From contig PBQA01000012.1 in the NCBI GenBank assembly GCA_002724925.1, positions 1-58,089 on the forward strand: DNA of 58,089 bases, in the 5' to 3' direction. The notes under the pieces are model-generated. The model was not told the DNA's origin and made no database searches. It saw only the letters and a program-made list of their open reading frames with translations. This DNA comes from Oceanospirillaceae bacterium. Its GTDB lineage: Bacteria; Pseudomonadota; Gammaproteobacteria; Pseudomonadales; Oceanobacteraceae. The position numbers were made by a program, and so were the translations under genes. How positions within the stretch are numbered: position 1 is the stretch's first letter; every line of letters starts with the position of its first letter. This document shows positions 11,060 to 50,535 of this stretch, piece after piece.

Positions 11060-11073
11060 CGAAAGTCAGCTGC
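11052..11073. terminator. Hairpin between lptG and the RDD gene
   Basis: GCGGCTGAC / GTCAGCTGC forms a 9-bp stem (one G-T) with a GAAA tetraloop, overlapping the lptG stop. No strong U-tract on either side; a bidirectional terminator between convergent genes is plausible. Confidence 0.4.
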
Positions 11074-11512: not shown

Positions 11513-11613
11513 TGGGGAAATAACCTCTGCAATCTGTTCACTGACGTCGGTCAGGACGCGTCTGGATGGGAATGTTAACATAAGCCCGAGACCAAAATTA
11601 CAGGAGTCATCTT

Positions 11614-12252: not shown

Positions 12253-12274
12253 GCGGTGCTGAATGAATTGGCCA

Positions 12275-12309
12275 ACTCAGAGCCGGCGCATCAAGTCGCG
12301 GCTCTGAGT
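12275..12309. terminator. 11-bp hairpin at the pdxH / fructosamine kinase junction
   Basis: ACTCAGAGCCG and CGGCTCTGAGT are perfect complements with a 13-nt loop. The hairpin sits over the last codons of the minus-strand gene and 23 bp after pdxH. It may terminate pdxH transcription; no U-tract, so function is uncertain. Confidence 0.4.
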
Positions 12310-33757: not shown

Positions 33758-35029
33758 TTAGTTAGACGTCAGCATGCCCGCGACACTGATCACGTTCATG
33801 GCCACTTCAACGATACGCTTATTGCTGTCCATCGCTGCCTGACGAAGGTGGCGATAGGCTTCCTCTTCCGTGATCCCTTTCGACTGGATCAGCAGGCCTT
33901 TCGCCTTATCAATCAGCTTACGTTCATCGAGTGCCTGGCGGGCCTCTGCCAATTCACTGCTAATGCGTTGTAAGCGCTCCGCCTGTCCCTGAACAAGGTC
34001 GGATATAGAACGCGCCAGTTTCACGTTAACACCGGGTGTCAGGTTGCTATCCGAATTTAACGTCGACTCAGGCAGCAAGCCTAATGGAGACTCGGGTGGC
34101 TCACTGACTTCTGCCAGATCCTTCAGGTGTTCCCGGTGGAGCCTCAGGTCTTCTTCGGCAGAATTAATTTTGGTTTCACAGAGTTTCATCAGGTCGCCGG
34201 TCATATCGAGTTCGATGCTCTGCATTTCATCAATACGGCGTGTCGCTACCTCATACCAGACTTCACTGATGGAGGTCGGCAAAGCATCCTCAGTACGATA
34301 GCGCTCAATCATCTTACGCAGACGTTCCAGCTCAGCCGTTGCCTCACAGCTCTCAAGTTGATGCCAGCGCGCTTTAGGAACACTGGCAGAGAATTCGGTG
34401 AAAATACCGAAGCAGCGTTCCTGCGCATCGAGTAGCTCGTGCACTTTATCCTGGAGGGTATTGCTGAAGCTCCCGCTGGTGAAGCCGATCAATCCCATCG
34501 CACGTTCCTGGCCCGCATATTCTTTACCTTGAACAAAGTTAAAGAGCGCAACCAGTGCACGGGTGATCTCCGGGTCATCAGCGATATCAGCCGCTTCAAA
34601 GATCACCGTGAGCAGCCCAGTAATTAAACGGCTGTAGAGTGCGGTGTTCTCAGTGGGCGACACTTTGCGGGCGGTCACCTGTGCTCGCAGCGCGTCTATT
34701 CCCTCAAGGCATTGAATAACAAACGCCAGGCTACTCAGTAGTCGGGTTGAGTGGGAGAGAGAGTCGCTTTCACTGAGTTTCGTAAGCGTCTGCCGGAAGT
34801 GCTTCTGGGCAATGCCGGTGACTTCGAGTTCATCGGCTCGCTGCTGCGCGTATCGCTGTCCGTCTGACACAAGATAAATGTTGGACAGACCACGTTCACG
34901 CTGAAGTTCGTGAATGAGTTCCGTTACCCGACCGACCAGGCGGCAATTCACCTGCAGTTGTTGAAGCGCTGCAATTTCAGCGTGTTTGGCGGCGAGCAGA
35001 AAGTCTTCGGAGGTGGTCAGTTGAGGCAT
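33758..35029 (-). CDS. NIT-ANTAR nitrate-responsive antiterminator (NasR-like)
   Basis: A 423-residue regulator. The N-terminal NIT domain (about 35-290: LIHELQRERGLSNIYLVSDG) is an all-helical nitrate/nitrite sensor. A linker follows, then a C-terminal ANTAR RNA-binding domain (about 350-415: LDERKLIDKAKGLLIQSKG, AYRHLRQAAMD). NasR of Klebsiella binds paired hairpins in the nas leader RNA and prevents termination when nitrate is present. Here no nitrate-assimilation genes adjoin. The divergent neighbour is the giant lipoprotein gene with a long leader. The target is therefore unknown and may be elsewhere on the chromosome. Confidence 0.9.
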   Translation of the reverse strand: MPQLTTSEDFLLAAKHAEIAALQQLQVNCRLVGRVTELIHELQRERGLSNIYLVSDGQRYAQQRADELEVTGIAQKHFRQTLTKLSESDSLSHSTRLLSSLAFVIQCLEGIDALRAQVTARKVSPTENTALYSRLITGLLTVIFEAADIADDPEITRALVALFNFVQGKEYAGQERAMGLIGFTSGSFSNTLQDKVHELLDAQERCFGIFTEFSASVPKARWHQLESCEATAELERLRKMIERYRTEDALPTSISEVWYEVATRRIDEMQSIELDMTGDLMKLCETKINSAEEDLRLHREHLKDLAEVSEPPESPLGLLPESTLNSDSNLTPGVNVKLARSISDLVQGQAERLQRISSELAEARQALDERKLIDKAKGLLIQSKGITEEEAYRHLRQAAMDSNKRIVEVAMNVISVAGMLTSN

Positions 35030-35511: not shown

Positions 35512-38500
35512 TTGAATAACTTCCGCACAGCACTATTGGTGCCCCTGGTTGCAGGCCTTGCTGCTTGTTCATCAGGTGGCTCAGATGGCGATGATCCACG
35601 AGTCCCGGATCCGGTTGATGGAGGAGGGCAAGCCCCCGTCGCACTGGATTTCGCATCGACTCCGGAAGGTAACCCTGTAGAAGACGAACGTTGGCAGTAT
35701 CAGATTGAAACGAATCTCGCTGACAGTGAGTCCTTGGTCTTCAGTCTGATCAGCGGTCCAGCAGGAATGGAAGTCTCGACCGATGGAATAGTCACTTGGA
35801 CACCAACTGATGAGCACGGCGATACCGTTGATGCAACGTTGCAAGCGACCTACGACGATGGTGAGACTCGTCTCACTGCGCAGCAGACCCTCACCCTGCA
35901 GGTCGTGCATGTCAACGACAAGCCACAGATTGTCTCCGACGAGCCGGACTCTGCGGTACTGGGCGGCTGGTTTGAGTATCAGATTGAGGTGGAGGACCCC
36001 GACGACGAAAACAACGGGACAGATATCCTCTTCAGTGCCTCATTGCCCTTCGTCAGTGAGTCCAGGCTGGAAAACTATCAACTTGAGGTGTCGCCCACGG
36101 GGCTTGTGACACTCTTTATTCCAGAGGACTTCCTGGAAGACCTTGATACAGAAGAAACTGGAATCGACAAAGTACTGATCGTCTCTGTAACGGTCACTGA
36201 TGGTGAGGAAGACTGGCGCACAACCCTCAATATTCCTGCCCGTCAACGATGGAATCTACTGGTCGTTGAGGCGAACTTGCCACCAGTTATCACCTCGGAG
36301 CCTGTGATCACTGCGACTGAAGATACAGCGTACGAATATCAGGTAGAGGCCGTCGATATTGCCGGTGAAACGGACCTTGGATTCGAGATAGACGATGACC
36401 TGACTTATACCCTCACCGACGCGCCGGACGGCATGACCATCTCGGCAACCGGCCTGATTGAATGGACACCAACCGAACAGGGCGCCGAACCGTACTTAGA
36501 AAACGTCACGGTTGTCGTTGCTGACGGCGGTGAAGACGGCGTCGAACCGGCAACGCAATCCTTTGCTATTGATGTCACTCCGGTCAATGACGCGCCCGCG
36601 TTGACGGGCTCGCCGATCAGTTTCGTAGAGGTCGGCACGACCTATTCTTATCAGCTTGTCGTGTTTGATACGGATGACATTAACATTGAAACAGATCTGA
36701 CGTTCTCCCTTCTGACGTCACCGGAAGGTATGGAAGTCGATGAACGGGGCCTTGTAACTTGGATGCCTGAGGTAACGAGCGGCACATTCACTGTGGAAGC
36801 GTCGGTCGCTGACGGCGGTGAAGACGGCGCCGAAGCCGCAACGCAAAGCTGGACGATTGAGGTGCGAGGTGGTGACAACCTTGCCCCTGTGATTGATCAG
36901 GGCGAAACAACGACCCTGACTACCGCCGAGGATAACGCAGGTGGCGTGACCCTGACCGCCAGTGACGTAAACGGCGACACACTCGGCTGGAGCATCCTGT
37001 CTGATGCCGGTAACGGTTCTGCGACGGTCTCCGCACAGGGTGAAGTTACCTACACCCCAGACCTGAACTTTAACGGCAGTGATACCTTCACCGTCCAGGT
37101 GTCTGACGGTGCACTGACGGACAGCATCGATGTCAGCGTGACGATCACTGCGATCAATGATAAGCCTGTGATCGTTTCTGAAAAGCCAACGTCTGCTGTG
37201 AAAGGCGCCTGGTTTGAATACCAGATGGAAGTAACTGATGCGGATGATGAGAACAATGGCACTGATCTGACGTTCACTGCGTCTTTGCCTCTCGTCAGTG
37301 AAGCCAACCGCCCTCAGTACAACCTGTCTGTTTCGTCGACCGGGGTGGTGCGGGTTTATGTTCCTACCTCTTACAGCTACAGCGTGCTGAGACTGAGAGT
37401 AGGAGTGACTGACGGTGAAGAAGACTGGCGTAACGGCATCAACGTGGCGCCTTATCAGTTCTGGGATCTTGCTGTTATAGATGGCAACACCGCCCCAGTG
37501 ATTACTTCAGAGGCCGTAACTACCGCCACTGAAGATGCCCTCTACTCATATCAGGTCGCTGCTGAAGACAGTGCGGGTGAGACCGCCGAAGGTGACCCGC
37601 TTCAGGACGAACTGACATACAGCCTGACTGAAGCACCGGCAGGCATGACCATCTCTGATACAGGTCTGATCCAGTGGACGCCGGCAGAGAACGGAGCGTC
37701 CTCATATTCTGAAAACGTCACTGTTATCGTTGCCGACGGCGGTGAAAACGATGTAGAGGCTGCAACTCAGAGCTTTACCGTGACAGTAACGCCTGTGAAC
37801 GATTCTCCAGTGCTGAGTGGCACGCCAACCAGCTTCGTACAGTTGGGTAACAGCTATTCCTACCAGCTTGAAGTGGCGGATGCCGACGACGCTAATAACG
37901 GCAATGATCTGACCTTTAACTTAGTGACTGCACCTTCGGGTATGACGGTCAGTGATATCGGTCTGGTGGACTGGACACCTGCGGTCGCCGCGGGTGTATA
38001 CAACGTTTCTGTCAGTGTCGTTGATGGCGGTGAAGATGGTGCGATTCCGGCAACTCTGGCGTGGACTGTTGAAGTCCGTGCTGCTGCTAACGTCGCTCCG
38101 GTGATCAACGAAGAAAGCGCCTCGATTGAAGTCGATGAAGATACGCAGGGCAATGAGACGCTGACCGCGACTGATGCAAACGGCGATACTCTGACCTGGT
38201 CTGTTATCAGTGCGGCCAGCAATGGTTCTGCAACAGCCACTGGTGGCAATCTGACATACACACCAGCAGCCAATTTCCACGGCAGTGACAGCTTCACTGT
38301 TCAGGTGTCTGACGGAGATCTGACGGACAGCATTGTTGTTAATGTCACCGTAAACTCCGTTAATGATCTGCCTGTGATTGACCAGGGCGCGACCACTTCT
38401 CTGACGACGCCTGAAAACACCGAAGGCAATATCACGTTGACCGCCTCTGATGCGGATGATGATTCACTGAGCTGGTCTGTCAGCGCGGCAGCGACTCATG

Positions 38501-41500
38501 GTTCTGCCTCCGTGGTGGACGGCAATGTCAGCTACACCCCGAATGAAAACTTCAACGGCAGCGACAGCTTCACTGTTCAGGTAACTGACGGCACAGCCAC
38601 TGACATTATCGTCGTTAATGTGACGGTCACCGCGGTGAATGAAGCCCCCGAGATTAATCAGTCGGAAGCTTCTGTAACGACTGACGAAGACACTGAGGGC
38701 ACGACCACACTGACGGCAACTGATACTGATGGCGATGTCCTGAGCTGGTCGGTCTCCAGTGCAGCGAGCAACGGCTTGGCGACTGTGACCGGTGGCAACG
38801 TCACCTACACCCCGAATGAGAACTTCAACGGCAGCGACAGCTTCACTGTTCTGCTTTCTGATGGTGAGCTGAGCGATACGATTGAAGTGTCCGTGACCGT
38901 GAATGAGCTGAACGATGCGCCAGTTATCGATCAGGGCGCAACGACCATACTGACGACCGACGAAGACGAAGAACAGACGCTCGTACTGTCTGCTTCTGAC
39001 GTTGAAAATGACAGCCTGAACTGGTCTGTTAGCAGTGCAGCCGCTAACGGTTTTGCCAGTGTGGTTGATGGTACGGTGACCTATCAGCCAGCGCCTGACT
39101 TCAATGGTACCGATGCCTTTGTTGTGATGGTGTCTGACGGTACTGATAGCGCGACGATTGCAGTCAGCGTGACGGTGAATGCCGTTAATGACCTGCCAGA
39201 AATCACCTCGTCCGCAATAACGACGGCAACCGAAGGCGTCGAATATTCTTACGCTGTTCTGGCGAGCGACGTCGAAGACGATTCTCTGACCTTCTCTCTG
39301 AATACGGCACCTGCGGGCATGAGCATCAGCAGCAGCGGTGTGATCACCTGGACGCCAGCAGACGGCATCAGCACCGCCAACGTGATTGTGGCTGTGTCTG
39401 ATGGTAGCGACAGTGGCAGTGTCACTCAGTCGTTCACGATTGCAGTGACCGATGTAAACGATGCCCCAGTGATTACCTCGGTGGCTCCAACGTCTGTCAT
39501 ATTGGGTGAGGAATACACCTATACGCCAAGCGCCACCGATGCCGAAAACGACCCCCTGACCTGGAGTCTGACTCAGAAGCCAGCCGGCATGACGATCAAT
39601 GTAACAACCGGTGCGATCAGCTGGACACCAGCCGAAGCAGGTAGCAGTGGCACTGTGCGTCTGGTCGCCAACGATGGCAACAGTGATTCTGTGGCCCAGA
39701 CCTTCGTGATTACTGTGTCTGAGCCAGACAACGAAGCGCCGGTCATCGGTCAGGGCGAAACAGGCACGCTGACCACTGATGAAGATACTCAGGGCAGTAC
39801 TACTCTTACCGCCACCGACACTAACGGTGACAGCCTGAGCTGGTCGGTATCCAGCCCGGCGAGTAACGGCAGTGCTGCGGTCGTGGGTGGCAATGTCACC
39901 TATACGCCAACCGCAAACTTCAATGGCAACGACAGCTTTACCGTTCAGGTGTCTGATGGTTCTCTGACCGATACCATTTTGGTGAACGTGACTGTGAGCG
40001 CGGTGAATGATCTGCCAGTTATTGCACAAGGTACGGGAACGGCGCTGACCACCCCAGAAAATACCGCAACGGGCGTGACTCTGAGCGCGTCTGATGTCGA
40101 TGGAGATAGCCTGAGCTGGTCGATCAGTACCGCTGCTTCTGATGGCTCGGCAAATGTGACGGCTGGCAATGTCAGCTACACCCCGAATGCCGGTTTCAAT
40201 GGCAATGACAGCTTCACGGTTCAGGTCTTTGATGGCACGGCACCAGTCAGCTTCGTTGTAAATGTCGAAGTGACTGCGATGAACGATGCGCCTGTGATTG
40301 ATCAGGAAACGGCCTCTGTTTCGACGTCTGAAGACACTCAGGGTACGACTGCTCTGACGGCTACCGATATTGATAGCGCCAGCCTGAGCTGGACCGTTTC
40401 AGTTGCGGCCAGCCATGGTTCGGCGGCTGTGTCCGATGGTAATGTCACCTACACCCCGAATGAAAACTTTAATGGCAGCGACAGCTTCACCGTTCAGGTG
40501 TCTGATGGTGAGTTGAGCGACAGCATTGTGGTCAGCGTGACCGTAACCGCAGTGAATGATGCGCCGGTCTTTGCTAATGCCGCGTCTACTTCGGCCGTGG
40601 AAGGCAGTGAGTACAGCTATCAGGCGGTCATCACTGACCCGGATGATGTCAACAACGGTACCGATCTGACCTTCACTCTGGATCAGGCGTCGATTGATGC
40701 GGGCCTGACTGTGTCTGGTACCGGCCTGGTGACCTGGACGCCAGATAACGGCGTGACCTCAACCTCGGTGTCACTGAGCGTAGCGGATGGTGGTGAAGAC
40801 GGAGCGTCTGCGGCGGTTCAGAACTGGACCATCACCGTCGACAGCGTGAACGACGCCCCTGTGATTACCTCCGAAGCGCCAACGACAGCGACTGAAGGGG
40901 TGGAATACCAGTACTCGATTCAGGTGAATGATCCGGACGACGCCAATAACGGCACCGATCTGATCTTTACCCCTGTATTGGTTCCTGAAGGTATGTCGGT
41001 ATCGAACATGGGCCTGGTGACCTGGACGCCAGCAAACGGTGTTGAATCTGCGAATGTCGAAGTGCAGGTACGCGACGGCGGTGAAAGTGGTGCGCTTCCA
41101 GACAGCCAGAGCTGGACCATCACCGTATCTCCGGTGAACGATGCACCTGTTATTGATCAGGGTGAGTCTGCATCTCTGACTACTGATGAAGATATGGTTC
41201 AGCAGCTAACTCTGACAGCGACTGACATCGACTCTGAAACACTGACCTGGAGCATCAGCAGTGCGGCAACCAATGGTACCGCTACCGTTGCTGCGGGATC
41301 TGTCAGCTACACGCCAGATGCGGACTTTAACGGCAGCGACAGCTTCACTGTCGAAGTATCAGACGGTGTTGAAGCGGATTTGATTCAGGTGAACGTGACG
41401 GTTAACGCAGTGAACGATGCCGCTGTATTCACCTCGACGCCGGTTACCAGCGCGACAGAGGGGCAGTTGTATAGCTATCAAGCTGCTGCTACTGACGTGG

Positions 41501-44500
41501 ATGGCGATGAGCTGAACTTCAGCCTGCCAGTGAAACCAGCAGGCATGAGCATCAACGTAACCAGTGGTGAAATGACCTGGACGCCAGCCAACGGTGTTGA
41601 ATCTGCGAACGTGACCGTGCGTGTTAACGACGGTACTACAGATACGAACCAGAGCTTCAGCATCGTGGTAACTCCGGTGAATAACGCACCGGTGGTTACT
41701 TCATCACCAGTGACGACTGCGACAGAAGGTCAGGCCTACAGCTATCTGGTAATGGCAGACGATATGGACAGCGAAGTGCTGACTTTCAGCCTGACTTCTG
41801 CGCCAGAAGGCATGAGCATTGATGATGAAACAGGAGCGATCAGCTGGACGCCTGCGAACGGTGTTGAGTCTGCGTCAGTGACTGTTGAAGTCTCTGATGG
41901 TGAGCTGAGCGATAGTCAGACATTTACTGTCTCTGTATCTGCCGTCAACGACGCACCTGCGATAGATCAGGGTGATTCCACGGCGCTGACAACAGATGAA
42001 GACGCGAGCCAGACACTGGCACTGACGGCCACAGACATTGACGGCGACAGTCTGAGCTGGAGCGTTACTTCTGGTGCAGCTAATGGTGAAGCATCCGTCG
42101 ATGGCAGCGGCCTGGTAAATTATGTACCAGCAGCTGACTTCAATGGTTCTGACGTGTTCACCGTTCAGGTAAGCGATGCCGGGTTGACTGATACCATCAC
42201 TGTTAACGTGACGGTAACTCCAGTGAATGATGCGCCTGTCGTTGTTGAAGGTAATGCAGTATCGATTACCACTGCAGAAGATACAGAAAAGAGCCTGACG
42301 TTGAACGCCAGTGATATTGATGGTGACAGCCTGAGCTGGTCCGTCGCTTCACCAGCCAGCAATGGTTCTGCGACTGTTTCGGCGGGCGTGGTGAACTATG
42401 CTCCAGGCGCCAGCTTCAATGGTAACGACAGCTTTGCGGTCGCAGTGACGGACGGCACTGATACAGTGACTGTTCAGGTAAATGTCACCGTCACCGCTGA
42501 AAACGACGCCCCAGTGATCGATCAGGAAACTGCGTCTATCGCAACGGATGAAGATACGCAGGGCAGTGTAACGCTCAGCGCAAGCGACCCAGAAGGTACG
42601 GCTCTGAACTGGACGATCAGCTCAGCTGCTGCAAATGGCTCTGCTGGTGTCAGCGCTAGTGGTGTCGTCACTTACGATCCCGAAGCAAACTTTAACGGTA
42701 CAGATAGCTTCACCGTCATGGTTTCGGATGGCGATCTGAACGACACCCGTGTTGTTAACGTTGTCGTATCAGCAGTAAATGATGCGCCTGAAATCACAGA
42801 AGGTGAGACGGCTTCTCTGAGCACCGACGAAGACAACATGGGCAGCGTTACTCTGAATGCTACTGATGTTGAGGGTGACACCATCAACTGGAGTATTGGG
42901 TCTCAAGCCAGCGATGGCACTGCGGTTGTGTCAGGTACGGGTACCAGCCAGACCGTGAATTACACACCAGCAGCTGACTTCAATGGCACCGATAGCTTTG
43001 TTGTTGCGATCGACGATGGCACAGATACCGATAGCATCATCGTCAATGTGACGGTAGTGGCCGCCAACGACGCGCCAGTTATCACTTCAACCGAAGTAAC
43101 AACAGCGACAGAAGGCGAGGCCTATCAGTACACAGTAGCTGCTAACGACGTCGATGGCGATGCGCTGACCTTCAGCCTGACAGAAGCACCAGAAGGCATG
43201 GTGATCTCTGGAAGCACCATTAACTGGACACCAGAAAACGGTGTTGAGACAGCGAACGTGACCGTGACTGTGGCTGACGCTACAGCAGAGGCTACACAAA
43301 GCTTCACTATTGTCGTAACTCCGGTTAACGATGCCCCTGCGATTACGTCTTCAGCAGTTACCTCTGCAACCGAAGGCAGTGAGTACACTTACCAGGTAGT
43401 CGCAGAAGATATCGACAGCACAGAGCTGGCTTATAGTCTGACTGAAGCGCCAGAGGGAATGACAATATCCGGCAATACCATCAGCTGGACACCAGCCAAT
43501 GGTGTTGAGTCGGCGAATGTGACTGTCGAAGTTTCGGACGGCAATCTGAGCGATAGCCAGAGCTTTACCATTACGGTTAGCGCAACCAACGATGCGCCTG
43601 AAATTGATCAGGGTGCCGTTACTGTGCTGACAACAGATGAAGACACCTCGACAACACTGAATCTGACCGCGACTGACGTAGACAGCGAAAGCCTGACCTG
43701 GCGCATCAGTGCTGCGTCAGAAAATGGCAGCGCGAGCGTTGATGCTTCGGGCGTCGTCAGCTACGAACCAGCCGCTGACTTTAACGGCAGCGATAGCTTC
43801 GAAGTAGAGGTCAGCGATAGCGAACTGACGGATAGCATCGTCGTTAGCGTAACGGTTAATCCGGTTGCCGATGCGCCAGTGATTGCCGAAGGCGCGAGTG
43901 CTTCACGTACCACCAACGAAGATCAGCCACTGACCTTTGCGTTGAACGCCAGCGATGTCGACAGCGCGACGATCAACTGGAGCATCAGTGGTGCAGCCAG
44001 CAACGGTTCTGCGACGGTTTCAGGTACGGGTACGACTCAATCTGTGAACTATGTGCCGAATCAGAACTTCAATGGTACTGACAGCTTTGTTGTGCAGGTA
44101 TCGGACGGTTCGCTGAACAGCACGATCGCAGTGACAGTGACGGTGAATGCAGTCAACGACCTGCCAGAGATCACGTCTATAGCACCTGTGGTTGCAACGG
44201 AAGGTGAGCTCTATACGTATCTGCCAACGGCGACCGATGTAGAAGGTGATGCTCTGACCTGGAACGTAGGTACCGCACCGGCTTCCATGACGGTGAACCC
44301 TGCGACCGGTGAACTGAACTGGACGCCGGCTGAAGGTGTAACTTCTGCGGATGTGACTCTGCTGGTCAACGACGGTGGTGCTAACGTGACTCAGGCCTTC
44401 ACCATTACTGTGACGGCAGTGAATAACGCACCAGTGATTACTGAGGGTGACACGGCCAGTGTGACCATGTCTGAAGACGGCGCGCCAACAGCCTTTGCTC

Positions 44501-47500
44501 TGGTTCTGAATGCGACCGACAGCGACCACGCCGGCACTGAGCTGACCTGGTCGGTCAGCGCGGCTGCGGGCAACGGTACAGCGACAGTATCTGGCACCGG
44601 TTTGAGCAAAACCGTGAATTACTCTCCGGACGCTGGTTTCTCAGGCAGCGACAGCTTCACTGTGCAGGTTTCTGATGGTGAGCTGAGCGACAGCATCATC
44701 GTCAATGTGACGGTAGAAGCAGTGAACGCTGCACCTGTGATTGATCAGGGCGATACCACCGCCATGACACTGGATGAAGACGGTACTCAGACATTGTCTC
44801 TGAGCGCGACTGACAGCGACGGTGATTCACTGACCTGGAACATCACTTCCTCGGCCAGCAATGGCGGTGTGAATGTCGATACGAACGGTCTGGTGACGTA
44901 CGTTCCTGACGGTGACTTCAATGGCAGTGACAGCTTCACCGTTCAGGTGTCTGACAGCGAACTGACTGACAGTATTACCGTTAGCGTGACTGTGAACCCG
45001 GTGAACGATGTACCTGTTATCACAGAGGGCGCATCGGTAACGCTTGAAGTTAACGAAGACAGCTCTGACTCAGTCACTTTCACTGCGACGGATGCTGACA
45101 ATGATCCTCTGACCTGGTCTATCTCTTCTGGGGCTGTAGAAGGCATCGTAACTCAGACTGGCTCTGAATTCAGTTATGCGCCTGCTGCTGACTTCAATGG
45201 CAGCGATAGCTTTGTCGTTCAGGTGAGTGACGGTACTGCTACTGGCACAAGCACCGTCAATGTGACCGTGATCGCTGTGAATGACGCACCGGTTGTTACC
45301 TCTGCGCCAGTGACGACAGCCAGTGAGTATCAGGTTTATGCATACGATGTGACGGCCACTGATGCTGAGGGGGATGCGGTAAGCTACTCGCTGAACACAG
45401 CACCTACAGGCATGACCATGAGTGCAGCCGGTGAAATCCGCTGGATTCCGGAATCTGCGGGTACCTATAGCGTTGTAGTGAATGCGACGGATGGCTCTGA
45501 TGCCGGTACTCAAAGCTTTGATATCACCGTTAACGCCGAGCCTGCTGTAGCCGGTCGCGCCGTGAAGGGTGTGTTGGCTAATGCGCCAGTGGAAGCTGCG
45601 GTCTATGCCGGTCTGGATGCCGAAGGAGAGCACAGCTGGAACGTTATTGGCACCACCACCACAGATGCGAATGGTTACTTCGGGTTCAGCCTGGGTACTC
45701 AGTCAGCACCAGTGCGTGTACGTGTGACGACGGATGCTGAGACGACGATGGTGTGTGATACGCCAAGTGGCTGTCTGATCTCTCCTCCAGCAGTATTCGG
45801 TGAGAGCGGTACACCAGCGGCCGGTATGGTTCTGGATACTATTGTCTCTGGCGCTGACTTTGCTGGTCCGCTGGCGGTGACTCCAATGACGCATATGGCC
45901 GCTACCTGGCTACAGGCCTTCCCGCAGGCGCTGGATGACAACAACGTGTTGTTGGCTCACAAACGTCTCGCGGCTCTGTTCGGCTTCACTGATGACACTT
46001 ACGTCAGCCAGCGTGTGCCAGACCTGACGGATGCCTTCGAGCGCAACTTTGCACTGAGCAGTAACGAGCAGGCTCTGCGTCACTCAATCTTCTCTGCGAG
46101 CCTGCAGGAGACGGCCATCGTTGCCAGCCTGCCGATTGATAGTGTGACTGAAAACATTGGTCTCATCTTCGGTCTGTTGGGTGGTCAGATGCCGCTGAAA
46201 TCCGGCGAGCTGGATGTAAGCACACTGGGTCTGACTGATCCTGATACTGAAGAGCCGATCACTACGGTCAGCTATACGGGCTTCGATACTTTCGTCGCCA
46301 GTGCTGAAACCGTAGGGCAGTTCATCAATGACGGTAGTCTCGACAGCATGATTGCCGGTTTCGGAAGCCTGGTGACCGATTGGACGCCAGAGCTGGCGGA
46401 CCCATCTATCTGTCTGGTGACCGACAATCCTGAACTGGATCGTACAGAGTGCCGCAACGTTACAACCATTGGTGAGGCTACAGGCTACGATGCAGCGAAC
46501 TTCGCACGTGCACTAGCACCAATCGATGTAGCAGGCGGTTATCTGGACGATGCGCAGGCAGCAGAGCTGGCGAACGGTAATACCGTGAACCGTGATCTGG
46601 GCTGGTTGTATGTTGATGGTAACGCGCAGACTAACACGGCGGAAATGCTCTCGGGTTTGTCGACCGCACTCGGATATGGTGTTCAGACCTCTGCCTGTGT
46701 GCCTCAATTTGCGAACAATCAGGGTTGTAGTATCGATCCCGCGGTTGGCTACGAGACATTGTCGACATCAATCACGAACTGCCGACACTCATCTATTTTC
46801 ACCACGCGAGATGAGTCTTGTACTCTGACTATTGGCGGTACGGCTAACGGACAGACTTTCAGTTTAAGTTCACGAGTACCTGATATCCGCACTATGCTTG
46901 GTGGTGATCGTTTAGGACCGCCTGACTTCAGTGCGGGTCCACTACCACTGTGCTTTAACGGTACTATCAGCAACTCAGTTGCGACGATGAATCTTAGTAA
47001 CTTCTGTGTGATTCTGAATGTGTCAGACAGTCGTTATGAATTGTTGCAACCTTTTGAGAGTCTGAATGCACTGGAGTACGCGAATATCGGTACCGAGGGA
47101 TCAGCTGCGTACAATGCTATGCAGGATCTTCTTGCTGAAGTAGTTCTTGAGGTCTCTGCAACTGGTGGGCTCAGCTTGACCAGTCAGGATAATAGTATTG
47201 GCACCTACAGCATGAGCAATATTGATATGTCGTTTGTGTTTGACCGTGAAAGCCTGGTTGATCTGAATAAAGGCACGCCAGTGTTCGATTTCGAGGTGGC
47301 CTCGTTCAGCCGTACCAACCCTTGGGGTGAGACACTGAACTCGGTGCCAGGTCACCCGATGTTCAAATTGCAGGTGGATGACACCAGTATCCTGACTGGC
47401 CGTAACGTGAAAGATAACGTCGGTGTTCCTCCGACACTGTCTGTCACTAATGCGACAGTAGAAGGTCTTGGTCCTGTGGTGGACGTTGCAAAAGAGTACG

Positions 47501-47934
47501 CATTGAGCCTCATCGATACTACCGTTGTTGTACCTGAGCGTACGCAAGAGGAGTGGGATGCGATCATCGCTGAGGTTGAAGCTAACCTGGCGTACAACGG
47601 TACGATTACCAGCACGATTCAGGACCCATCGGCAGGGGATCGCACTTACATCGCAACACTGACGCCAGAGGGCAATGTGTTCATCAGTCAGGAGAACAGC
47701 ACGGCGAATGCTATGCAGCTGTACCTGTCTGGTGCGACAGGCTACATCTACGCTGATGAAACGCTGGTGGCGACTGCTCACCTGGGTAACAGTCAGGATG
47801 GTATGTTGCTGAGCTTTGTTGACGGTACTCAGCGTAGCTACACTAACGCTAACCCGAATCTATCGGGACAGTTGGATAGCTTCCTCGAGTTCCTGCAGGT
47901 TCTGGTTCCACCGGCTGAAGAAACAGCGCCTTAA
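35512..47934 (+). CDS. Giant Ig/cadherin-repeat lipoprotein (4140 aa)
   Basis: A predicted outer-membrane lipoprotein adhesin. The TTG start is supported by AGAGGAG; the signal ends LAAC with Cys19 as lipid site and Ser at +2 (not an inner-membrane retention signal). Residues about 45-3340 hold some 35 tandem modules of 80-95 residues. Eighteen are 'tandem-95'/cadherin-like (each with FNGSDSFTVQVSDG), about 15 are putative-Ig-type (each with a WTPANG-like motif), and two copies are of a third type (WFEYQ...DDENNGTD). Residues about 3343-4140 form a non-repetitive C-terminal region starting AGRAVKGVLANAPVEAAVYA, with VTPMTHMAATW. No RTX repeats, no autotransporter barrel and no LapG-type processing site were noticed. 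It probably extends far from the cell and binds a surface, partner cell or glycan (inference). Confidence 0.93.
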   Translation: MNNFRTALLVPLVAGLAACSSGGSDGDDPRVPDPVDGGGQAPVALDFASTPEGNPVEDERWQYQIETNLADSESLVFSLISGPAGMEVSTDGIVTWTPTDEHGDTVDATLQATYDDGETRLTAQQTLTLQVVHVNDKPQIVSDEPDSAVLGGWFEYQIEVEDPDDENNGTDILFSASLPFVSESRLENYQLEVSPTGLVTLFIPEDFLEDLDTEETGIDKVLIVSVTVTDGEEDWRTTLNIPARQRWNLLVVEANLPPVITSEPVITATEDTAYEYQVEAVDIAGETDLGFEIDDDLTYTLTDAPDGMTISATGLIEWTPTEQGAEPYLENVTVVVADGGEDGVEPATQSFAIDVTPVNDAPALTGSPISFVEVGTTYSYQLVVFDTDDINIETDLTFSLLTSPEGMEVDERGLVTWMPEVTSGTFTVEASVADGGEDGAEAATQSWTIEVRGGDNLAPVIDQGETTTLTTAEDNAGGVTLTASDVNGDTLGWSILSDAGNGSATVSAQGEVTYTPDLNFNGSDTFTVQVSDGALTDSIDVSVTITAINDKPVIVSEKPTSAVKGAWFEYQMEVTDADDENNGTDLTFTASLPLVSEANRPQYNLSVSSTGVVRVYVPTSYSYSVLRLRVGVTDGEEDWRNGINVAPYQFWDLAVIDGNTAPVITSEAVTTATEDALYSYQVAAEDSAGETAEGDPLQDELTYSLTEAPAGMTISDTGLIQWTPAENGASSYSENVTVIVADGGENDVEAATQSFTVTVTPVNDSPVLSGTPTSFVQLGNSYSYQLEVADADDANNGNDLTFNLVTAPSGMTVSDIGLVDWTPAVAAGVYNVSVSVVDGGEDGAIPATLAWTVEVRAAANVAPVINEESASIEVDEDTQGNETLTATDANGDTLTWSVISAASNGSATATGGNLTYTPAANFHGSDSFTVQVSDGDLTDSIVVNVTVNSVNDLPVIDQGATTSLTTPENTEGNITLTASDADDDSLSWSVSAAATHGSASVVDGNVSYTPNENFNGSDSFTVQVTDGTATDIIVVNVTVTAVNEAPEINQSEASVTTDEDTEGTTTLTATDTDGDVLSWSVSSAASNGLATVTGGNVTYTPNENFNGSDSFTVLLSDGELSDTIEVSVTVNELNDAPVIDQGATTILTTDEDEEQTLVLSASDVENDSLNWSVSSAAANGFASVVDGTVTYQPAPDFNGTDAFVVMVSDGTDSATIAVSVTVNAVNDLPEITSSAITTATEGVEYSYAVLASDVEDDSLTFSLNTAPAGMSISSSGVITWTPADGISTANVIVAVSDGSDSGSVTQSFTIAVTDVNDAPVITSVAPTSVILGEEYTYTPSATDAENDPLTWSLTQKPAGMTINVTTGAISWTPAEAGSSGTVRLVANDGNSDSVAQTFVITVSEPDNEAPVIGQGETGTLTTDEDTQGSTTLTATDTNGDSLSWSVSSPASNGSAAVVGGNVTYTPTANFNGNDSFTVQVSDGSLTDTILVNVTVSAVNDLPVIAQGTGTALTTPENTATGVTLSASDVDGDSLSWSISTAASDGSANVTAGNVSYTPNAGFNGNDSFTVQVFDGTAPVSFVVNVEVTAMNDAPVIDQETASVSTSEDTQGTTALTATDIDSASLSWTVSVAASHGSAAVSDGNVTYTPNENFNGSDSFTVQVSDGELSDSIVVSVTVTAVNDAPVFANAASTSAVEGSEYSYQAVITDPDDVNNGTDLTFTLDQASIDAGLTVSGTGLVTWTPDNGVTSTSVSLSVADGGEDGASAAVQNWTITVDSVNDAPVITSEAPTTATEGVEYQYSIQVNDPDDANNGTDLIFTPVLVPEGMSVSNMGLVTWTPANGVESANVEVQVRDGGESGALPDSQSWTITVSPVNDAPVIDQGESASLTTDEDMVQQLTLTATDIDSETLTWSISSAATNGTATVAAGSVSYTPDADFNGSDSFTVEVSDGVEADLIQVNVTVNAVNDAAVFTSTPVTSATEGQLYSYQAAATDVDGDELNFSLPVKPAGMSINVTSGEMTWTPANGVESANVTVRVNDGTTDTNQSFSIVVTPVNNAPVVTSSPVTTATEGQAYSYLVMADDMDSEVLTFSLTSAPEGMSIDDETGAISWTPANGVESASVTVEVSDGELSDSQTFTVSVSAVNDAPAIDQGDSTALTTDEDASQTLALTATDIDGDSLSWSVTSGAANGEASVDGSGLVNYVPAADFNGSDVFTVQVSDAGLTDTITVNVTVTPVNDAPVVVEGNAVSITTAEDTEKSLTLNASDIDGDSLSWSVASPASNGSATVSAGVVNYAPGASFNGNDSFAVAVTDGTDTVTVQVNVTVTAENDAPVIDQETASIATDEDTQGSVTLSASDPEGTALNWTISSAAANGSAGVSASGVVTYDPEANFNGTDSFTVMVSDGDLNDTRVVNVVVSAVNDAPEITEGETASLSTDEDNMGSVTLNATDVEGDTINWSIGSQASDGTAVVSGTGTSQTVNYTPAADFNGTDSFVVAIDDGTDTDSIIVNVTVVAANDAPVITSTEVTTATEGEAYQYTVAANDVDGDALTFSLTEAPEGMVISGSTINWTPENGVETANVTVTVADATAEATQSFTIVVTPVNDAPAITSSAVTSATEGSEYTYQVVAEDIDSTELAYSLTEAPEGMTISGNTISWTPANGVESANVTVEVSDGNLSDSQSFTITVSATNDAPEIDQGAVTVLTTDEDTSTTLNLTATDVDSESLTWRISAASENGSASVDASGVVSYEPAADFNGSDSFEVEVSDSELTDSIVVSVTVNPVADAPVIAEGASASRTTNEDQPLTFALNASDVDSATINWSISGAASNGSATVSGTGTTQSVNYVPNQNFNGTDSFVVQVSDGSLNSTIAVTVTVNAVNDLPEITSIAPVVATEGELYTYLPTATDVEGDALTWNVGTAPASMTVNPATGELNWTPAEGVTSADVTLLVNDGGANVTQAFTITVTAVNNAPVITEGDTASVTMSEDGAPTAFALVLNATDSDHAGTELTWSVSAAAGNGTATVSGTGLSKTVNYSPDAGFSGSDSFTVQVSDGELSDSIIVNVTVEAVNAAPVIDQGDTTAMTLDEDGTQTLSLSATDSDGDSLTWNITSSASNGGVNVDTNGLVTYVPDGDFNGSDSFTVQVSDSELTDSITVSVTVNPVNDVPVITEGASVTLEVNEDSSDSVTFTATDADNDPLTWSISSGAVEGIVTQTGSEFSYAPAADFNGSDSFVVQVSDGTATGTSTVNVTVIAVNDAPVVTSAPVTTASEYQVYAYDVTATDAEGDAVSYSLNTAPTGMTMSAAGEIRWIPESAGTYSVVVNATDGSDAGTQSFDITVNAEPAVAGRAVKGVLANAPVEAAVYAGLDAEGEHSWNVIGTTTTDANGYFGFSLGTQSAPVRVRVTTDAETTMVCDTPSGCLISPPAVFGESGTPAAGMVLDTIVSGADFAGPLAVTPMTHMAATWLQAFPQALDDNNVLLAHKRLAALFGFTDDTYVSQRVPDLTDAFERNFALSSNEQALRHSIFSASLQETAIVASLPIDSVTENIGLIFGLLGGQMPLKSGELDVSTLGLTDPDTEEPITTVSYTGFDTFVASAETVGQFINDGSLDSMIAGFGSLVTDWTPELADPSICLVTDNPELDRTECRNVTTIGEATGYDAANFARALAPIDVAGGYLDDAQAAELANGNTVNRDLGWLYVDGNAQTNTAEMLSGLSTALGYGVQTSACVPQFANNQGCSIDPAVGYETLSTSITNCRHSSIFTTRDESCTLTIGGTANGQTFSLSSRVPDIRTMLGGDRLGPPDFSAGPLPLCFNGTISNSVATMNLSNFCVILNVSDSRYELLQPFESLNALEYANIGTEGSAAYNAMQDLLAEVVLEVSATGGLSLTSQDNSIGTYSMSNIDMSFVFDRESLVDLNKGTPVFDFEVASFSRTNPWGETLNSVPGHPMFKLQVDDTSILTGRNVKDNVGVPPTLSVTNATVEGLGPVVDVAKEYALSLIDTTVVVPERTQEEWDAIIAEVEANLAYNGTITSTIQDPSAGDRTYIATLTPEGNVFISQENSTANAMQLYLSGATGYIYADETLVATAHLGNSQDGMLLSFVDGTQRSYTNANPNLSGQLDSFLEFLQVLVPPAEETAP

Positions 47935-47959
47935 CCGGCGCTGGTTTAAGCAACAACGA

Positions 47960-47987
47960 AAAGGCCACGCTATGCGTGGCCTTTTTT
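47960..47987. terminator. Bidirectional terminator between the giant gene and the FecR gene
   Basis: AAGGCCACGC / GCGTGGCCTT with a 3-nt loop. Six T follow on the plus strand and a T-rich stretch on the minus strand. It separates two convergent transcripts. Confidence 0.88.
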
Positions 47988-47999
47988 ATGCGGCGATCG

Positions 48000-49217
48000 T
48001 TATGGGCACTCGGGGTCTCCTGGGCATATCATGCCTGGTCCGGGGTCAAGTGGATCAAGGCCCGTTCCGGGGCCTATCGGATCGAGTGGATCTCCCCCTG
48101 GGTTCGTTGGCAATCCGGAGCCCGTGCCTGGTTCCTGTGGTTCTGTTATTGGTGGTTCTGTTATTGGTGGTTCTGTTATTGGTGGTTCTGTCACCGGCGG
48201 TTCAGGGTCAGTGACAGGTTCTTCCGGTTGAGGCTCTGGCTGAGTTGGCGCCGCAGCAGGTTGTTCCGGAGTGAAGGCCGGGTCAAACTCATCTGGCAGA
48301 CCAAAACGCGTTTCCATACGCTCAATAATACGTTGAACCTGAAGGTTGTCGATGTACTGCTGAGACTCCCGGCGACTTTGCTGGCGGCTCTCGTCCGATG
48401 CCTTGCGGTTGCTGTTCTTCTCAGCCCTGTTATCAGCTGGGTCATCTGCTGTGACGTTACTCAGCGTACTTTCACTCTGTTCCGAGTCATCTTCCGCACT
48501 GGTTTGTGGCCGTTCAAACGTTAATGGCGGTGCAAAGAAGAAAACCGGCGGCATGCCTTCCGCAGCGATGACGCTTCCTTCTGGTTGATCTACAGTAATG
48601 CTCTGTCCTTCAGCGGTGACAACAAAGGTGCCCGTCGGAATTGAAGAGTAGGGGCCGGGGCCCATCAGAGATGAGTAGCTCAGCGGCCCAGAATCGGGCG
48701 GCAGCTGAATATCAGGAAAATGCATGGAGACCTGGTCGGGCGAGAGTATGGCTGTTACGCCCATCGTTCCCAGCACCGCAACTTCTGTTGACGGTTGCAG
48801 GATTCTGAAGGCGCTCAGGCTGCCATCTGCAATACGGCCAGTGGCGAATTTCAGTTGTCCTGATTCCTGAGTAATCTGCAAATTACCGCTATTTTTATGC
48901 GCATCATACTCGAACTTATCCAGAGAAATTACCGAGCCTTCACCGAAGGTAAATGTGCTTTCGTCTCTCAGCAACAACTGAAACAGCTGGCCACTGCCGG
49001 ATTCAATGCGATCCCCTGGAAAGATAGGCTCACCACTATTTGCTGTCAGGCTTTGATCGTTACGGTAGACGGTCACCGAACCTTTCAGACCGGCCAGCAC
49101 ACCAGCCTCCTGTGCGTGGGCATGAATTGCTGCAGCCAACGCAGTCAGCGTCAGTAAGGCGCTACCGAGGCGCTTACGTGATTGAACATGTCTGTTCATT
49201 GCGATACTCGTCGTCAT
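48000..49217 (-). CDS. FecR-domain secreted protein with proline-rich tail
   Basis: A 405-residue exported protein. Signal peptide ends AIHAHA. A FecR domain (PF04773-like) lies at about 40-150: GLKGSVTVYRNDQSL, PGDRIESGSGQLFQLLLRDE. A charged helical part follows (about 240-300). The tail of about 100 residues is rich in Pro and Glu with tandem TEPPI units, then Gly/Pro to the end, with two Cys near the C-terminus (MICPGDPECP). No transmembrane anti-sigma part, so it is not the classical iron-citrate FecR. Second gene of an operon: 10 bp after the TPR-barrel gene, GAGGG before the ATG. Such FecR proteins may act as periplasmic or surface adaptors (inference). Confidence 0.85.
   Translation of the reverse strand: MTTSIAMNRHVQSRKRLGSALLTLTALAAAIHAHAQEAGVLAGLKGSVTVYRNDQSLTANSGEPIFPGDRIESGSGQLFQLLLRDESTFTFGEGSVISLDKFEYDAHKNSGNLQITQESGQLKFATGRIADGSLSAFRILQPSTEVAVLGTMGVTAILSPDQVSMHFPDIQLPPDSGPLSYSSLMGPGPYSSIPTGTFVVTAEGQSITVDQPEGSVIAAEGMPPVFFFAPPLTFERPQTSAEDDSEQSESTLSNVTADDPADNRAEKNSNRKASDESRQQSRRESQQYIDNLQVQRIIERMETRFGLPDEFDPAFTPEQPAAAPTQPEPQPEEPVTDPEPPVTEPPITEPPITEPPITEPQEPGTGSGLPTNPGGDPLDPIGPGTGLDPLDPGPGMICPGDPECP
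48139..48190. repeat. 15-bp tandem repeat in the FecR-protein tail
   Basis: The unit GGTTCTGTTATTGGT is repeated three times exactly, with a diverged fourth copy, encoding TEPPI on the minus strand. Because the unit is a multiple of three, copy-number change would alter tail length without a frameshift. Confidence 0.85.
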
Positions 49218-49227
49218 TACAGGGCCC

Positions 49228-50535
49228 TCAAAGACTGAACAGTTTTGTGACCGACGCCGACCAGCGGGTATTACGGTACTCGTAGTTTGAAATATCAGCG
49301 CGATTCAATTGGCGCTCACCGCTGATGGTCAGATCCATATTATCGATCAACTCGATGGGCAGTGTCACAGCGAGCGATGCGAACAAAGGTTTGCTGCGCC
49401 TCACGAGTGATGGATCGCCGGTGACAAACTCCGATGAACCTGAGTAACGCGTTCGACTCTGGCTGACAAATGCGGCGATCGATTGTCCGGCGCTGGCTGT
49501 CCAGCGGTAGCTCATGCTGGTGGACCAGTTGGTATAGCTGGAAGCCTCGATGCGAGCTTCTTTTGTGCTATAGCCCAATGCCATGTAGAGGTTGTGAACC
49601 TTATCGAAGGTCAGCGATCCTGCGACTTTTGAGTAATATCGTTTCCCAGAGCTGCCACTGGCGCCCGGGGCGATGTAGTTATCTGACGACACGCCTGTGC
49701 TCAGACGGGTATTTATATAGAGATTCAGATCCTTGAGATCCCAGGCGTAAGAAGAGCTGATGCTCCCCCCATGACTGCGTAACAGACCCTCTCCATACAG
49801 AGACTGGTGTTGCGCGTTACCCGAGATGGTCAGGTTGAGGCCATCAAAGTCAAAGCGATTTCCGAGCGTGCCGTACCAACTTGAGAAATCGAGAGAATCC
49901 TGTGTGGCGAAGTTATCACGAGTGTATTGAAGTGATGCAATCGCGGCGTGCTGGCGGTAATCGCCCCACGCATAGTCCAGATCATAACTGAGGTTGAACT
50001 CGGTACCGTATTCCTCAACCTTCTTTTGTGGAAAGTCGAACTCGTAGCCGTAAAACAGAATGGTATCGTCGTCAGGTGCGTTGTTGATGTTGTTATCGTG
50101 ATGCCCCGTGACTGACACTGAGAGAGTCTGGGCCGCGCGCTGATCGAGCTCATCTATTCTGCGCAGGTAATCAAGAACCAACCACTCATCGCTCTGAGGA
50201 AGAGGGCGGGAACGTACCTCTTCGAACTCTTCCCGGGCCTCTACCATCATGTCAGAGTGATAGAGCAGACTTGCATAAATGATTCTCGCGCGGTTCTGAT
50301 GGGGCTCAAGCAGAAGAATTCGCTCCACGACCGGAATAGCAGACTTAATGTCGCCCTCGTCGATTTTCTGTTGAAGATAACAGTAGTTGAGCGCCAGATC
50401 ATCGGGCTTACTGTAGATATCGCTGAAGCTGATACCTGTCTGACAATCGCCTTGCCGGGCGGGCGTCGAAGAAGAGGAGTCGGCGACAGCCGCAGAGCTG
50501 GCCAGCAAAGTAGAAAGTAAAATGACGTACCGCAC
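49228..50535 (-). CDS. TPR plus beta-barrel outer-membrane protein, Slam/DUF560-like
   Basis: A 435-residue protein with a signal peptide (ends AVA), two TPR-like helical repeats at about 55-125 (PVVERILLLEPHQNRARIIYASLLY) and about 300 residues of alternating amphipathic strands (about 138-435). The strands are consistent with a barrel of around 14, ending VTKLFSL. This order and size match Slam-type outer-membrane translocons (type XI secretion), which move lipoproteins to the cell surface, but sequence identity to Slam cannot be tested here. GTG start with AGGA upstream. Operon with the FecR gene, convergent to the giant lipoprotein. Alternatives: an exopolysaccharide export porin of the PgaA/BcsC sort or an uncharacterised TPR-porin. 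Confidence 0.65.
   Translation of the reverse strand: MRYVILLSTLLASSAAVADSSSSTPARQGDCQTGISFSDIYSKPDDLALNYCYLQQKIDEGDIKSAIPVVERILLLEPHQNRARIIYASLLYHSDMMVEAREEFEEVRSRPLPQSDEWLVLDYLRRIDELDQRAAQTLSVSVTGHHDNNINNAPDDDTILFYGYEFDFPQKKVEEYGTEFNLSYDLDYAWGDYRQHAAIASLQYTRDNFATQDSLDFSSWYGTLGNRFDFDGLNLTISGNAQHQSLYGEGLLRSHGGSISSSYAWDLKDLNLYINTRLSTGVSSDNYIAPGASGSSGKRYYSKVAGSLTFDKVHNLYMALGYSTKEARIEASSYTNWSTSMSYRWTASAGQSIAAFVSQSRTRYSGSSEFVTGDPSLVRRSKPLFASLAVTLPIELIDNMDLTISGERQLNRADISNYEYRNTRWSASVTKLFSL

What the first reader, a model, noticed from the sequence alone, without database searches (positions are those of the whole stretch)
35512..50535. Giant lipoprotein facing a TPR-barrel plus FecR operon: a candidate surface-lipoprotein export system
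Seen: a 4140-residue protein with a clear lipobox and about 35 Ig/cadherin modules. Convergent to it and 66 bp away is an operon for a signal-peptide protein with TPRs plus a beta-barrel, and a FecR-domain exported protein. Established: Slam proteins (type XI secretion) have N-terminal TPRs and a 14-strand barrel and flip lipoproteins to the surface; known cargos are far smaller. Inference: the barrel protein could export the giant lipoprotein with FecR as an adaptor. This would be a new cargo class and an unusual three-part module.
Basis: partly seen in the sequence, partly recalled or inferred. Interest (0 to 1): 0.8.

Follow-up and report, generated by a model that had tools for sequence, protein, structure and literature searches.

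The report
FecR-linked type 11 secretion pair
Next to a giant lipoprotein lies a gene pair for a likely outer-membrane export channel and its exported partner; relatives of this pair occur together in many bacteria, whereas the giant lipoprotein looks like a neighbour rather than part of the machine.

Summary
The three genes are as described. The 49228-50535 product has N-terminal TPRs and a divergent SlipAM/DUF560 (Slam, T11SS) barrel: below Pfam's cut-off alone (16.4 bits), but E=1e-16 against a profile of 18 relatives from outside the genus. The three-part module fails. The giant lacks the TbpB-type cargo domain, is beside the pair in 4 of the 7 genus genomes that have it, about 950 kb away in another, and intact in a 99%-complete genome lacking the pair. 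The conserved partner is FecR: beside the barrel in 16 of 17 order genomes outside the genus and 17 of 22 class genomes with weak SlipAM hits. In 20 of these 33 the FecR protein matches a C-terminal profile (18 helped build it) whose PDB hits are TbpB, hemophilin and NHBA (best 1e-9), T11SS-type cargoes. Started from that profile, 28 of 34 new loci had all three elements. The FecR N-terminus resembles the LapA retention module (32 of 39; 0 of 10 ordinary FecR regulators), though Leptospira LipL45/Lsa33 models score better. The window's FecR protein is a short form without the cargo domain. I read this as a new T11SS variant with non-lipidated, possibly self-anchored cargo.

The parts
49228..50535 (-). 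TPR plus beta-barrel outer-membrane protein, T11SS (Slam/SlipAM) superfamily, 435 aa
   Evidence: SlipAM 16.4 bits, E=0.0066, residues 139-380, cut-off 22; profile without the window genus E=1e-16 over nearly its full length
50131..50427 (-). N-terminal TPR helices (residues 37-135)
   Evidence: Pfam TPR_9/TPR_19 sub-threshold; AlphaFold2 helices, 10-residue block pLDDT 79-88
49396..50121 (-). SlipAM/DUF560-like barrel region (residues 139-380), opening with GHHDNNINN, the window's form of the family's D-N-N motif
48000..49217 (-). Exported FecR-domain protein, short form, 405 aa, no C-terminal cargo barrel detected
   Evidence: PF04773 26.8 bits; retention_LapA 22.4 bits, E=1.1e-4, below its cut-off of 50; no A2 hit
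48762..49013 (-). FecR domain
48003..48281 (-). Proline-rich low-complexity tail ending CPGDPECP; holds the protein's only two cysteines
   Evidence: a CPGDPxCP ending also in the orthologs of G144, G147, G148 and G150, not in that of G145
47959..47985 (.). Hairpin between the convergent units, terminator-like
   Evidence: consensus scan only
35512..47934 (+). Giant Ig/cadherin-repeat lipoprotein, 4140 aa; neighbour, probably not part of the conserved pair
45544..47931 (+). C-terminal 796 aa of the giant; full-length matches only within the genus among the genomes searched

Best explanation
The minus-strand pair is a divergent, shortened version of a widespread gammaproteobacterial module: a T11SS-type outer-membrane protein (TPR + SlipAM barrel) and a Sec-exported, non-lipidated FecR-domain protein that is its dedicated substrate. 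In most relatives the substrate has the order FecR domain - variable region - one to four TbpB-type barrel domains, the last being the known T11SS cargo signature. Proposed working (inferred): the C-terminal cargo domain engages the translocon and leads the export; the N-terminal FecR domain, which resembles the retention module of LapA-type adhesins, stays on the periplasmic side near the TPRs and tethers the protein without a lipid. In Thalassolituus the FecR partner lacks the cargo domain and ends in a proline-rich tail, so it either threads that tail outward or acts only as a periplasmic plug or adaptor. The giant lipoprotein is a separate gene that happens to converge on the pair. Shown: homologies, domain order, conserved pairing, presence and absence. 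Inferred: translocation, direction, tethering.
For: Barrel family: at E<=0.1, 7 of 21 members (the window's among them) hit SlipAM, best 4.8e-17, and 11 of 21 TPR_Slam, best 1.2e-5; profile A1 finds eight Slam-type proteins beside TbpB_B_D matches at 7e-42 to 4e-14; a profile of 18 barrels from outside the genus finds the window barrel at 1e-16. Pairing: FecR within 5 kb in 16 of 17 order genomes outside the genus with a barrel match and in 17 of 22 class genomes with weak SlipAM hits, but in 0 of 5 with strong Slam-type hits; those 5 have TbpB_B_D matches at E<=0.001, 3 of them over the cut-off. FecR is usually the next gene downstream. C-terminal domain: A2 against the PDB gives TbpB 9.6e-10 and 2.3e-8, hemophilin 2.4e-5, NHBA 5.3e-5, haemophore 2.2e-4, then Wnt at about 1; 15 of 23 genomes recovered with their own lineage left out. 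Reverse test: 27 of 34 new loci carry all three, 28 with G394, whose domain match only one search shows. Of 34 proteins found that way, 30 match FecR, 2 TbpB_B_D (best 1.7e-6), 6 'Slam-dependent surface lipoprotein' (best 1e-9). Retention_LapA at E<=0.01 in 32 of 39 and 20 of 34, in 0 of 10 ordinary FecR regulators at E<=0.1; PDB 5ix9 1.8e-7. A simple lipobox pattern in 1 of 73, ahead of the likely start. One FecR-TPR-barrel fusion, L034:8769-10814.
Against: The window's FecR protein lacks the cargo domain, and no A2 match was found in 9 genus genomes, so the export role is least supported exactly here. The window barrel scores below the SlipAM cut-off, and a whole-genome PF04575 search of G000 gave no match at E<=0.001, though none of its control genomes rang either. 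AlphaFold2 gave no barrel and no FecR fold. With lineage left out, 8 of 23 genomes were not recovered, and of four G048 proteins only one was. Long FecR proteins of G089 (two), G064, G081 and G005 gave no A2 match. L213 and L214 (one genus) have the C-terminal domain without FecR or barrel. The NCBIfam models LipL45 and Lsa33 (Leptospira FecR-type surface proteins) match the FecR partners with better E-values (3.5e-16, 9.3e-16) than retention_LapA (5e-10), and Lsa33 also matches 5 of the 10 control regulators weakly, so the retention reading is not the only one.
Confidence: 0.6

Rival explanations
1. One reading: the barrel flips the giant lipoprotein to the surface, with the short FecR protein as periplasmic adaptor.
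For: Lipobox and adjacency in 4 of 7 genus genomes with the giant. In the genus's second locus a lipoprotein follows barrel and short FecR on the same strand (L050, L139, L140); the two scanned have PKD repeats, one also a sub-threshold cadherin-like hit. Hooda 2017 found lipobox proteins beside about 52% of 353 Slam genes (PMC5449769, passages).
Against: No TbpB-type domain in the giant; giant present without the pair in G104, where the family profile finds no full TPR-barrel protein; unlinked in G145; full-length giant found only in the genus while the pair is found across the class; opposite strand with a hairpin between.
Confidence: 0.14
2. The pair is a periplasm-facing gate or plug with no own cargo domain in this genus; FecR stays in the periplasm and the true cargo is encoded elsewhere.
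For: Other short FecR proteins without an A2 match lie beside barrels (for example G260, G376, G017, G120, G059, G312); the FecR-barrel fusion in G005 puts FecR on the TPR side; G270 has a short and a long FecR gene after one barrel.
Against: No A2 match in 9 genus genomes and no TbpB_B_D match in the 4 genus genomes searched, so no candidate cargo of the known type was found.
Confidence: 0.18
3. A sensory device: FecR senses at the envelope and reports to nearby CHASE2 cyclases; the barrel is a porin-like receptor.
For: CHASE2 plus cyclase genes lie near the pair in five loci of other genera (L026, L029, L031, L033, L035) and in two copies of the genus's second locus (L050, L139); in L026, L033 and L035 the cyclase gene sits between FecR and barrel.
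Against: I scanned only genes that already looked like CHASE2 proteins, so 7 of 7 is not a frequency; in the window no ORF of 600 aa or more other than the giant lies between 47.5 and 58 kb; cargo-type C-terminal domains point to export.
Confidence: 0.06

Closest known systems
Type 11 secretion system / Slam / DUF560 (PF04575 SlipAM, PF24575 TPR_Slam)
   Same: N-terminal TPR, C-terminal SlipAM-like barrel, neighbouring gene with a TbpB-type C-terminal domain in most relatives
   Different: Sequence far from the strongly matching Slams; partner carries an N-terminal FecR domain and no lipobox; in the window the cargo domain is missing. Grossman 2021 and 2025 describe clusters without known cargo and, for marine cluster 3, DUF1194 neighbours; the search listing shows no occurrence of FecR in either text
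Hemophilin/HrpC-type soluble T11SS cargo
   Same: Non-lipidated, C-terminal TbpB-type domain
   Different: N-terminal FecR/retention-like domain, larger, one to four C-terminal domains, LysM in a few
LapA-type retention module (NF033682; PDB 5ix9)
   Same: Profile similarity of the FecR-protein N-terminus
   Different: LapA-type adhesins use a type 1 system (stated in PMC12153261, passages); here the channel is T11SS-like and the proteins have Sec signals by eye; the window's score is below the model's cut-off
Leptospira FecR-type surface proteins LipL45 and Lsa33 (NCBIfam)
   Same: FecR region; models match 31 and 32 of 39 partners
   Different: No T11SS barrel pairing or TbpB-type domain is implied by these models; not examined further
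FecR anti-sigma regulator
   Same: PF04773 domain
   Different: No match to PRK09774 among 39 partners at E<=0.01, while 10 of 10 control regulators match it; signal peptide instead of a cytoplasmic N-terminus (by eye)

Membership tests
T11SS / Slam outer-membrane protein (49228-50535) | N-terminal TPR domain | tested here: met
   TPR_19 in 21 of 21 family members at E<=0.1; window's own TPR hits sub-threshold; AlphaFold2 helices 37-135
T11SS / Slam outer-membrane protein (49228-50535) | C-terminal DUF560/SlipAM domain over the curated cut-off | tested here: not met
   16.4 bits against a cut-off of 22
T11SS / Slam superfamily (49228-50535) | full-length homology to SlipAM-type proteins | tested here: met
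   profile of 18 SlipAM-retrieved barrels from outside the genus: E=1e-16, positions 9-444
T11SS / Slam outer-membrane protein (49228-50535) | 14-stranded barrel | tested here: inconclusive
   AlphaFold2 with 2 sequences gave no barrel
T11SS / Slam outer-membrane protein (49228-50535) | translocates a cargo | not testable with these tools
   needs an experiment
Slam-dependent lipoprotein (giant, 35512-47934) | lipobox | tested here: met
   LAAC, Cys19
Slam-dependent lipoprotein (giant, 35512-47934) | eight-stranded TbpB-type barrel domain | tested here: not met
   no PF01298 at E<=1, no A2 hit at E<=1
Slam-dependent lipoprotein (giant, 35512-47934) | consistent co-occurrence with its Slam | tested here: not met
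   G104 has the giant without the barrel; G145 unlinked; linked in 4 of 7
T11SS cargo (window FecR protein, 48000-49217) | C-terminal TbpB-type barrel domain | tested here: not met
   no A2 hit; many relatives have it
LapA-type retention module (window FecR protein) | match over NCBIfam cut-off of 50 bits | tested here: not met
   22.4 bits, E=1.1e-4
LapA-type retention module (window FecR protein) | LapG cleavage site and type 1 secretion signal | not tested
   not looked for
FecR anti-sigma regulator (window FecR protein) | match to the FecR regulator model PRK09774 | tested here: not met
   not among the hits of the window protein at E<=1; 10 of 10 controls match

The most novel reading that the evidence does not exclude
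A T11SS variant whose cargo anchors itself by a plug instead of a lipid: the N-terminal FecR domain is a LapA-type retention module that stays in the periplasm against the TPR domain of its own translocon while the TbpB-type C-terminal domains stand outside, so one architecture joins the retention logic of giant type 1 adhesins to the type 11 channel. It would give cargo to a class-wide set of T11SS-like proteins that have none assigned.
Probability: 0.3. Interest if true: 0.8.

Novelty: new variant of a known kind. Interest (0 to 1): 0.6.

Why it matters
The majority of T11SS outer-membrane proteins have no known or predicted cargo (Grossman 2025, PMC12282271, introduction). The FecR + TbpB-type proteins are specific, adjacent, widely conserved candidates that can be tested in laboratory strains. 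If the FecR domain is a retention module, it shows how a non-lipidated T11SS cargo can remain cell-bound, and extends a retention principle known from type 1 adhesins to another secretion channel.

Tried and rejected
Rejected: giant lipoprotein as dedicated cargo (see rivals). Rejected: FecR as an anti-sigma regulator. Rejected as chance: Shiga-toxin B-subunit model hits on the giant's repeats (E 3.3e-4 to 0.66 in a 4140-aa repeat protein), and the SlipAM hit of G246, which lies inside a UvrA-like ORF (by eye).

Led nowhere: AlphaFold2 of the barrel (2 sequences, mean pLDDT 40.6) and of the FecR protein (35.3); no fold search was run because such models would give meaningless matches. Four viral-contig scans gave no relative. 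PDB searches with the window barrel or window FecR protein alone gave no match below E=0.3. NCBIfam gave no family for the barrel. PHROGs gave none for the barrel and one of unknown function for the FecR protein (phrog_37870, E=1.9e-8).

Selection to tell: from the FecR proteins fetched up, the C-terminal set took 29 stretches; left out were proteins under 460 aa, the two long ones of G089, the 1201-aa one of G304 and the G005 fusion. A2 used 25 of these 29; G136, G110, G081 and G064 were dropped because they looked divergent in the alignment. The lineage-left-out test used the 29. Of 11 ordinary FecR regulators fetched, 10 were scanned (that of L151 was not). Of 37 new genomes, 34 were fetched; G183 (already seen) and G298, G409 (TbpB_B_D genomes) were left out. 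Of the 6 misses, four (L200, L202, L215, L225) are loci cut by contig ends and two (G299, G410) are real. The 34 proteins come from 32 of the 34 loci (two proteins each from L196 and L218; none from L224 and L225).
Full report
What is there. The window is one contig of a Thalassolituus/Oleibacter-like genome: the barrel protein is 100% identical to one in an Oleibacter marinus MAG and 86% identical to one in Thalassolituus maritimus DSM 24913. The giant lipoprotein, the FecR protein and the TPR-barrel protein are at the stated places. Sixty-five bases with a terminator-like hairpin separate the convergent units.

Is the barrel protein a Slam? Alone it scores 16.4 bits with SlipAM over residues 139-380, below the cut-off of 22, with sub-threshold TPR hits, and a whole-genome PF04575 search found nothing at E<=0.001 (its control genomes rang nowhere). 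Its relatives settle the matter at superfamily level. Of 21 aligned proteins, the window's included, 7 hit SlipAM at E<=0.1 (best 4.8e-17) and 11 hit TPR_Slam (best 1.2e-5). The family profile A1 finds eight Slam-type proteins beside TbpB_B_D matches at 7e-42 to 4e-14. A profile built only from 18 barrels that were retrieved with the SlipAM model, none from the window genus, finds the window barrel at E=1e-16 over nearly its full length, slightly weaker than those eight (4e-41 to 6e-17). The number of strands could not be tested.

Who is its partner? In the order sample of 144 genomes, 17 genomes outside the genus had a barrel match; 16 of 17 have a FecR gene within 5 kb, the exception being G037 (the G024 FecR stretch is below the cut-off and has a stop). 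In the class sample, 27 of 274 genomes have a SlipAM match at E<=0.001. Five are strong (best E<=2e-20): none has any FecR at E<=0.001, and all five have TbpB_B_D matches at E<=0.001, three of them over the cut-off. Of the other 22, 17 have FecR beside the match; G189, G246, G277, G283 and G288 do not. FecR is usually directly downstream on the same strand; in G136, G110, G081 and G238 it is upstream. With one to nine FecR genes per FecR-bearing genome of about 2-5 Mb, chance neighbourhood would be of the order of 1% (my estimate).

What are the FecR partners? Short ones (about 250-430 aa, the window's among them) and long ones (about 460-1330 aa). The last 205 residues of 25 long ones form profile A2. 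Against all PDB sequences its hits are TbpB (9.6e-10, 2.3e-8), hemophilin (2.4e-5), NHBA/GNA2132 (5.3e-5 and weaker) and a haemophore (2.2e-4), then Wnt proteins at about 1. TbpB and haemophilin-type proteins are T11SS cargoes according to Grossman 2025 (PMC12282271, introduction); that NHBA is one is recalled. In 20 of the 33 order and class genomes above, the neighbouring FecR protein matches A2 at E<=0.001; 18 of these 20 helped to build it. With each genome's lineage left out, 15 of 23 genomes were still recovered, at E of 1.9e-6 or better; G005, G038, G064, G081, G111, G136, G304 and G414 were not. A2 also finds proteins it was not built from: a TbpB_B_D protein in G409 (2.8e-7) and a FecR-less protein beside the barrel in G037 (1.9e-8). 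It does not find the long FecR proteins of G089, G064, G081 and G005.

Reverse test. A2 matched 49 of 369 class genomes, among them the TbpB_B_D genomes G409 and G298. For 34 of the 37 genomes not used to build it I fetched the locus. In 27 of 34, the C-terminal domain, an N-terminal FecR domain on the same protein and a TPR-barrel gene occur together; with G394, where one search shows FecR and barrel and only the domain, 28 of 34. In L223 the barrel gene is on the other strand. Four misses are contig ends, two (one genus) are real. Of 34 proteins with the domain, 30 match Pfam FecR, 2 TbpB_B_D (best 1.7e-6), 3 LysM, and 6 the NCBIfam model 'Slam-dependent surface lipoprotein' (best 1e-9). A simple lipobox pattern was found in the first 90 residues of 1 of 73 FecR proteins, ahead of the likely start.

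Retention module. NCBIfam's LapA retention module matches 32 of 39 FecR partners at E<=0.01 (best 5e-10) and 20 of 34 in the new set (best 4.5e-9), but 0 of 10 ordinary FecR regulators at E<=0.1, all of which match the FecR regulator model. Against this reading, the Leptospira models LipL45 and Lsa33 match the partners with better E-values (31 and 32 of 39), and Lsa33 also matches 5 of the 10 regulators weakly. The best PDB match of the 39-member profile is 5ix9, titled 'Antifreeze protein', E=1.8e-7; that this is the N-terminal anchor region of an RTX adhesin is recalled. The window protein alone reaches only 22.4 bits with the module and E=0.44 with 5ix9. In G005 a FecR domain is fused to the front of a TPR-barrel protein (L034:8769-10814), which would put FecR on the periplasmic side.

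The giant. It is found in 7 of 9 genus genomes (in G150 only as a contig-end fragment), and a full-length match was seen nowhere else in 44 family genomes. The pair is next to it in G000, G144, G147 and G148, where an Hsp70-like gene intervenes; the barrels of G000 and G147 are identical. In G145 it is some 950 kb away. In G104 (99% complete) the giant has 4105 aa with a lipobox; genes resembling the window's 33758-35029, 51465-52043 and 52226-53146 flank it by eye, with a few other genes between, but the pair is missing there, and the family profile finds no full TPR-barrel protein in that genome. G146 and G149 have neither. The giant has no detected TbpB-type domain. In its favour, the genus's second barrel + short-FecR locus is followed by a lipoprotein (583 aa in G145, 591 aa in G148; in G150 its length is uncertain), with PKD repeats in the two scanned. 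That keeps a lipoprotein-cargo reading of the short FecR form alive.

Literature. No held paper contains both 'FecR' and 'surface lipoprotein assembly modifier'; of 4 papers with two of DUF560, type XI secretion and FecR, and of 6 with two of FecR, type 11 secretion and T11SS, none contains FecR. A search for 'FecR domain' with Slam or TbpB gave 17 papers; the 10 listed had no 'FecR domain'. Seen: PMC8406197 outline with abstract and the first of two parts of Results; PMC12282271 outline with abstract, introduction and both cluster 3 sections; PMC5449769, PMC5192318, PMC5498481 and PMC12153261 passages only; the rest as search listings. So the FecR-linked T11SS family is not in print as far as these searches reach; subscription papers and preprints were not held.

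Verdict. The Slam hunch was right at superfamily level; the giant cargo is probably wrong; and the FecR 'adaptor' is better read as the channel's own substrate family, of which the window carries a shortened member.

Noticed in passing
L034:8769-10814: Natural fusion of a FecR domain with a TPR-barrel (681 aa), followed by a separate FecR protein.
   Followed up: partly
L050:8952-12951, L139:5070-9195, L140: Second barrel + short FecR + lipoprotein locus in three genus genomes; the two scanned lipoproteins (583, 591 aa) have PKD repeats.
   Followed up: partly
L026, L029, L031, L033, L035, L050, L139: CHASE2 + cyclase gene near the barrel/FecR pair, in L026, L033 and L035 between the two.
   Followed up: partly
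L196:5397-9398 and 9549-12668: FecR proteins with four and three TbpB-type domains in tandem.
   Followed up: no
L098:410-4756, L106:2454-4499: LysM-like start ahead of the FecR domain by eye; the LysM model matches 1 of 39 and 3 of 34 FecR proteins.
   Followed up: no
L107:519-4124: ORF with two FecR domains and an outer-membrane-barrel-like C-terminus (by eye).
   Followed up: no
L025:10358-12421: Barrel neighbour with the TbpB-type C-terminal domain but no FecR match (G037).
   Followed up: partly
G000:C14:185040-185825 and G104:C1:161419-162228: Proteins of about 300 aa without TPR that match the barrel half of the family profile.
   Followed up: no
window 45544-47931: First ~200 aa of the giant's C-terminal region have weak relatives (32-36%) in ORFs of 340-1165 aa in G437, G444 and G421; a related stretch in G119.
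   Followed up: no
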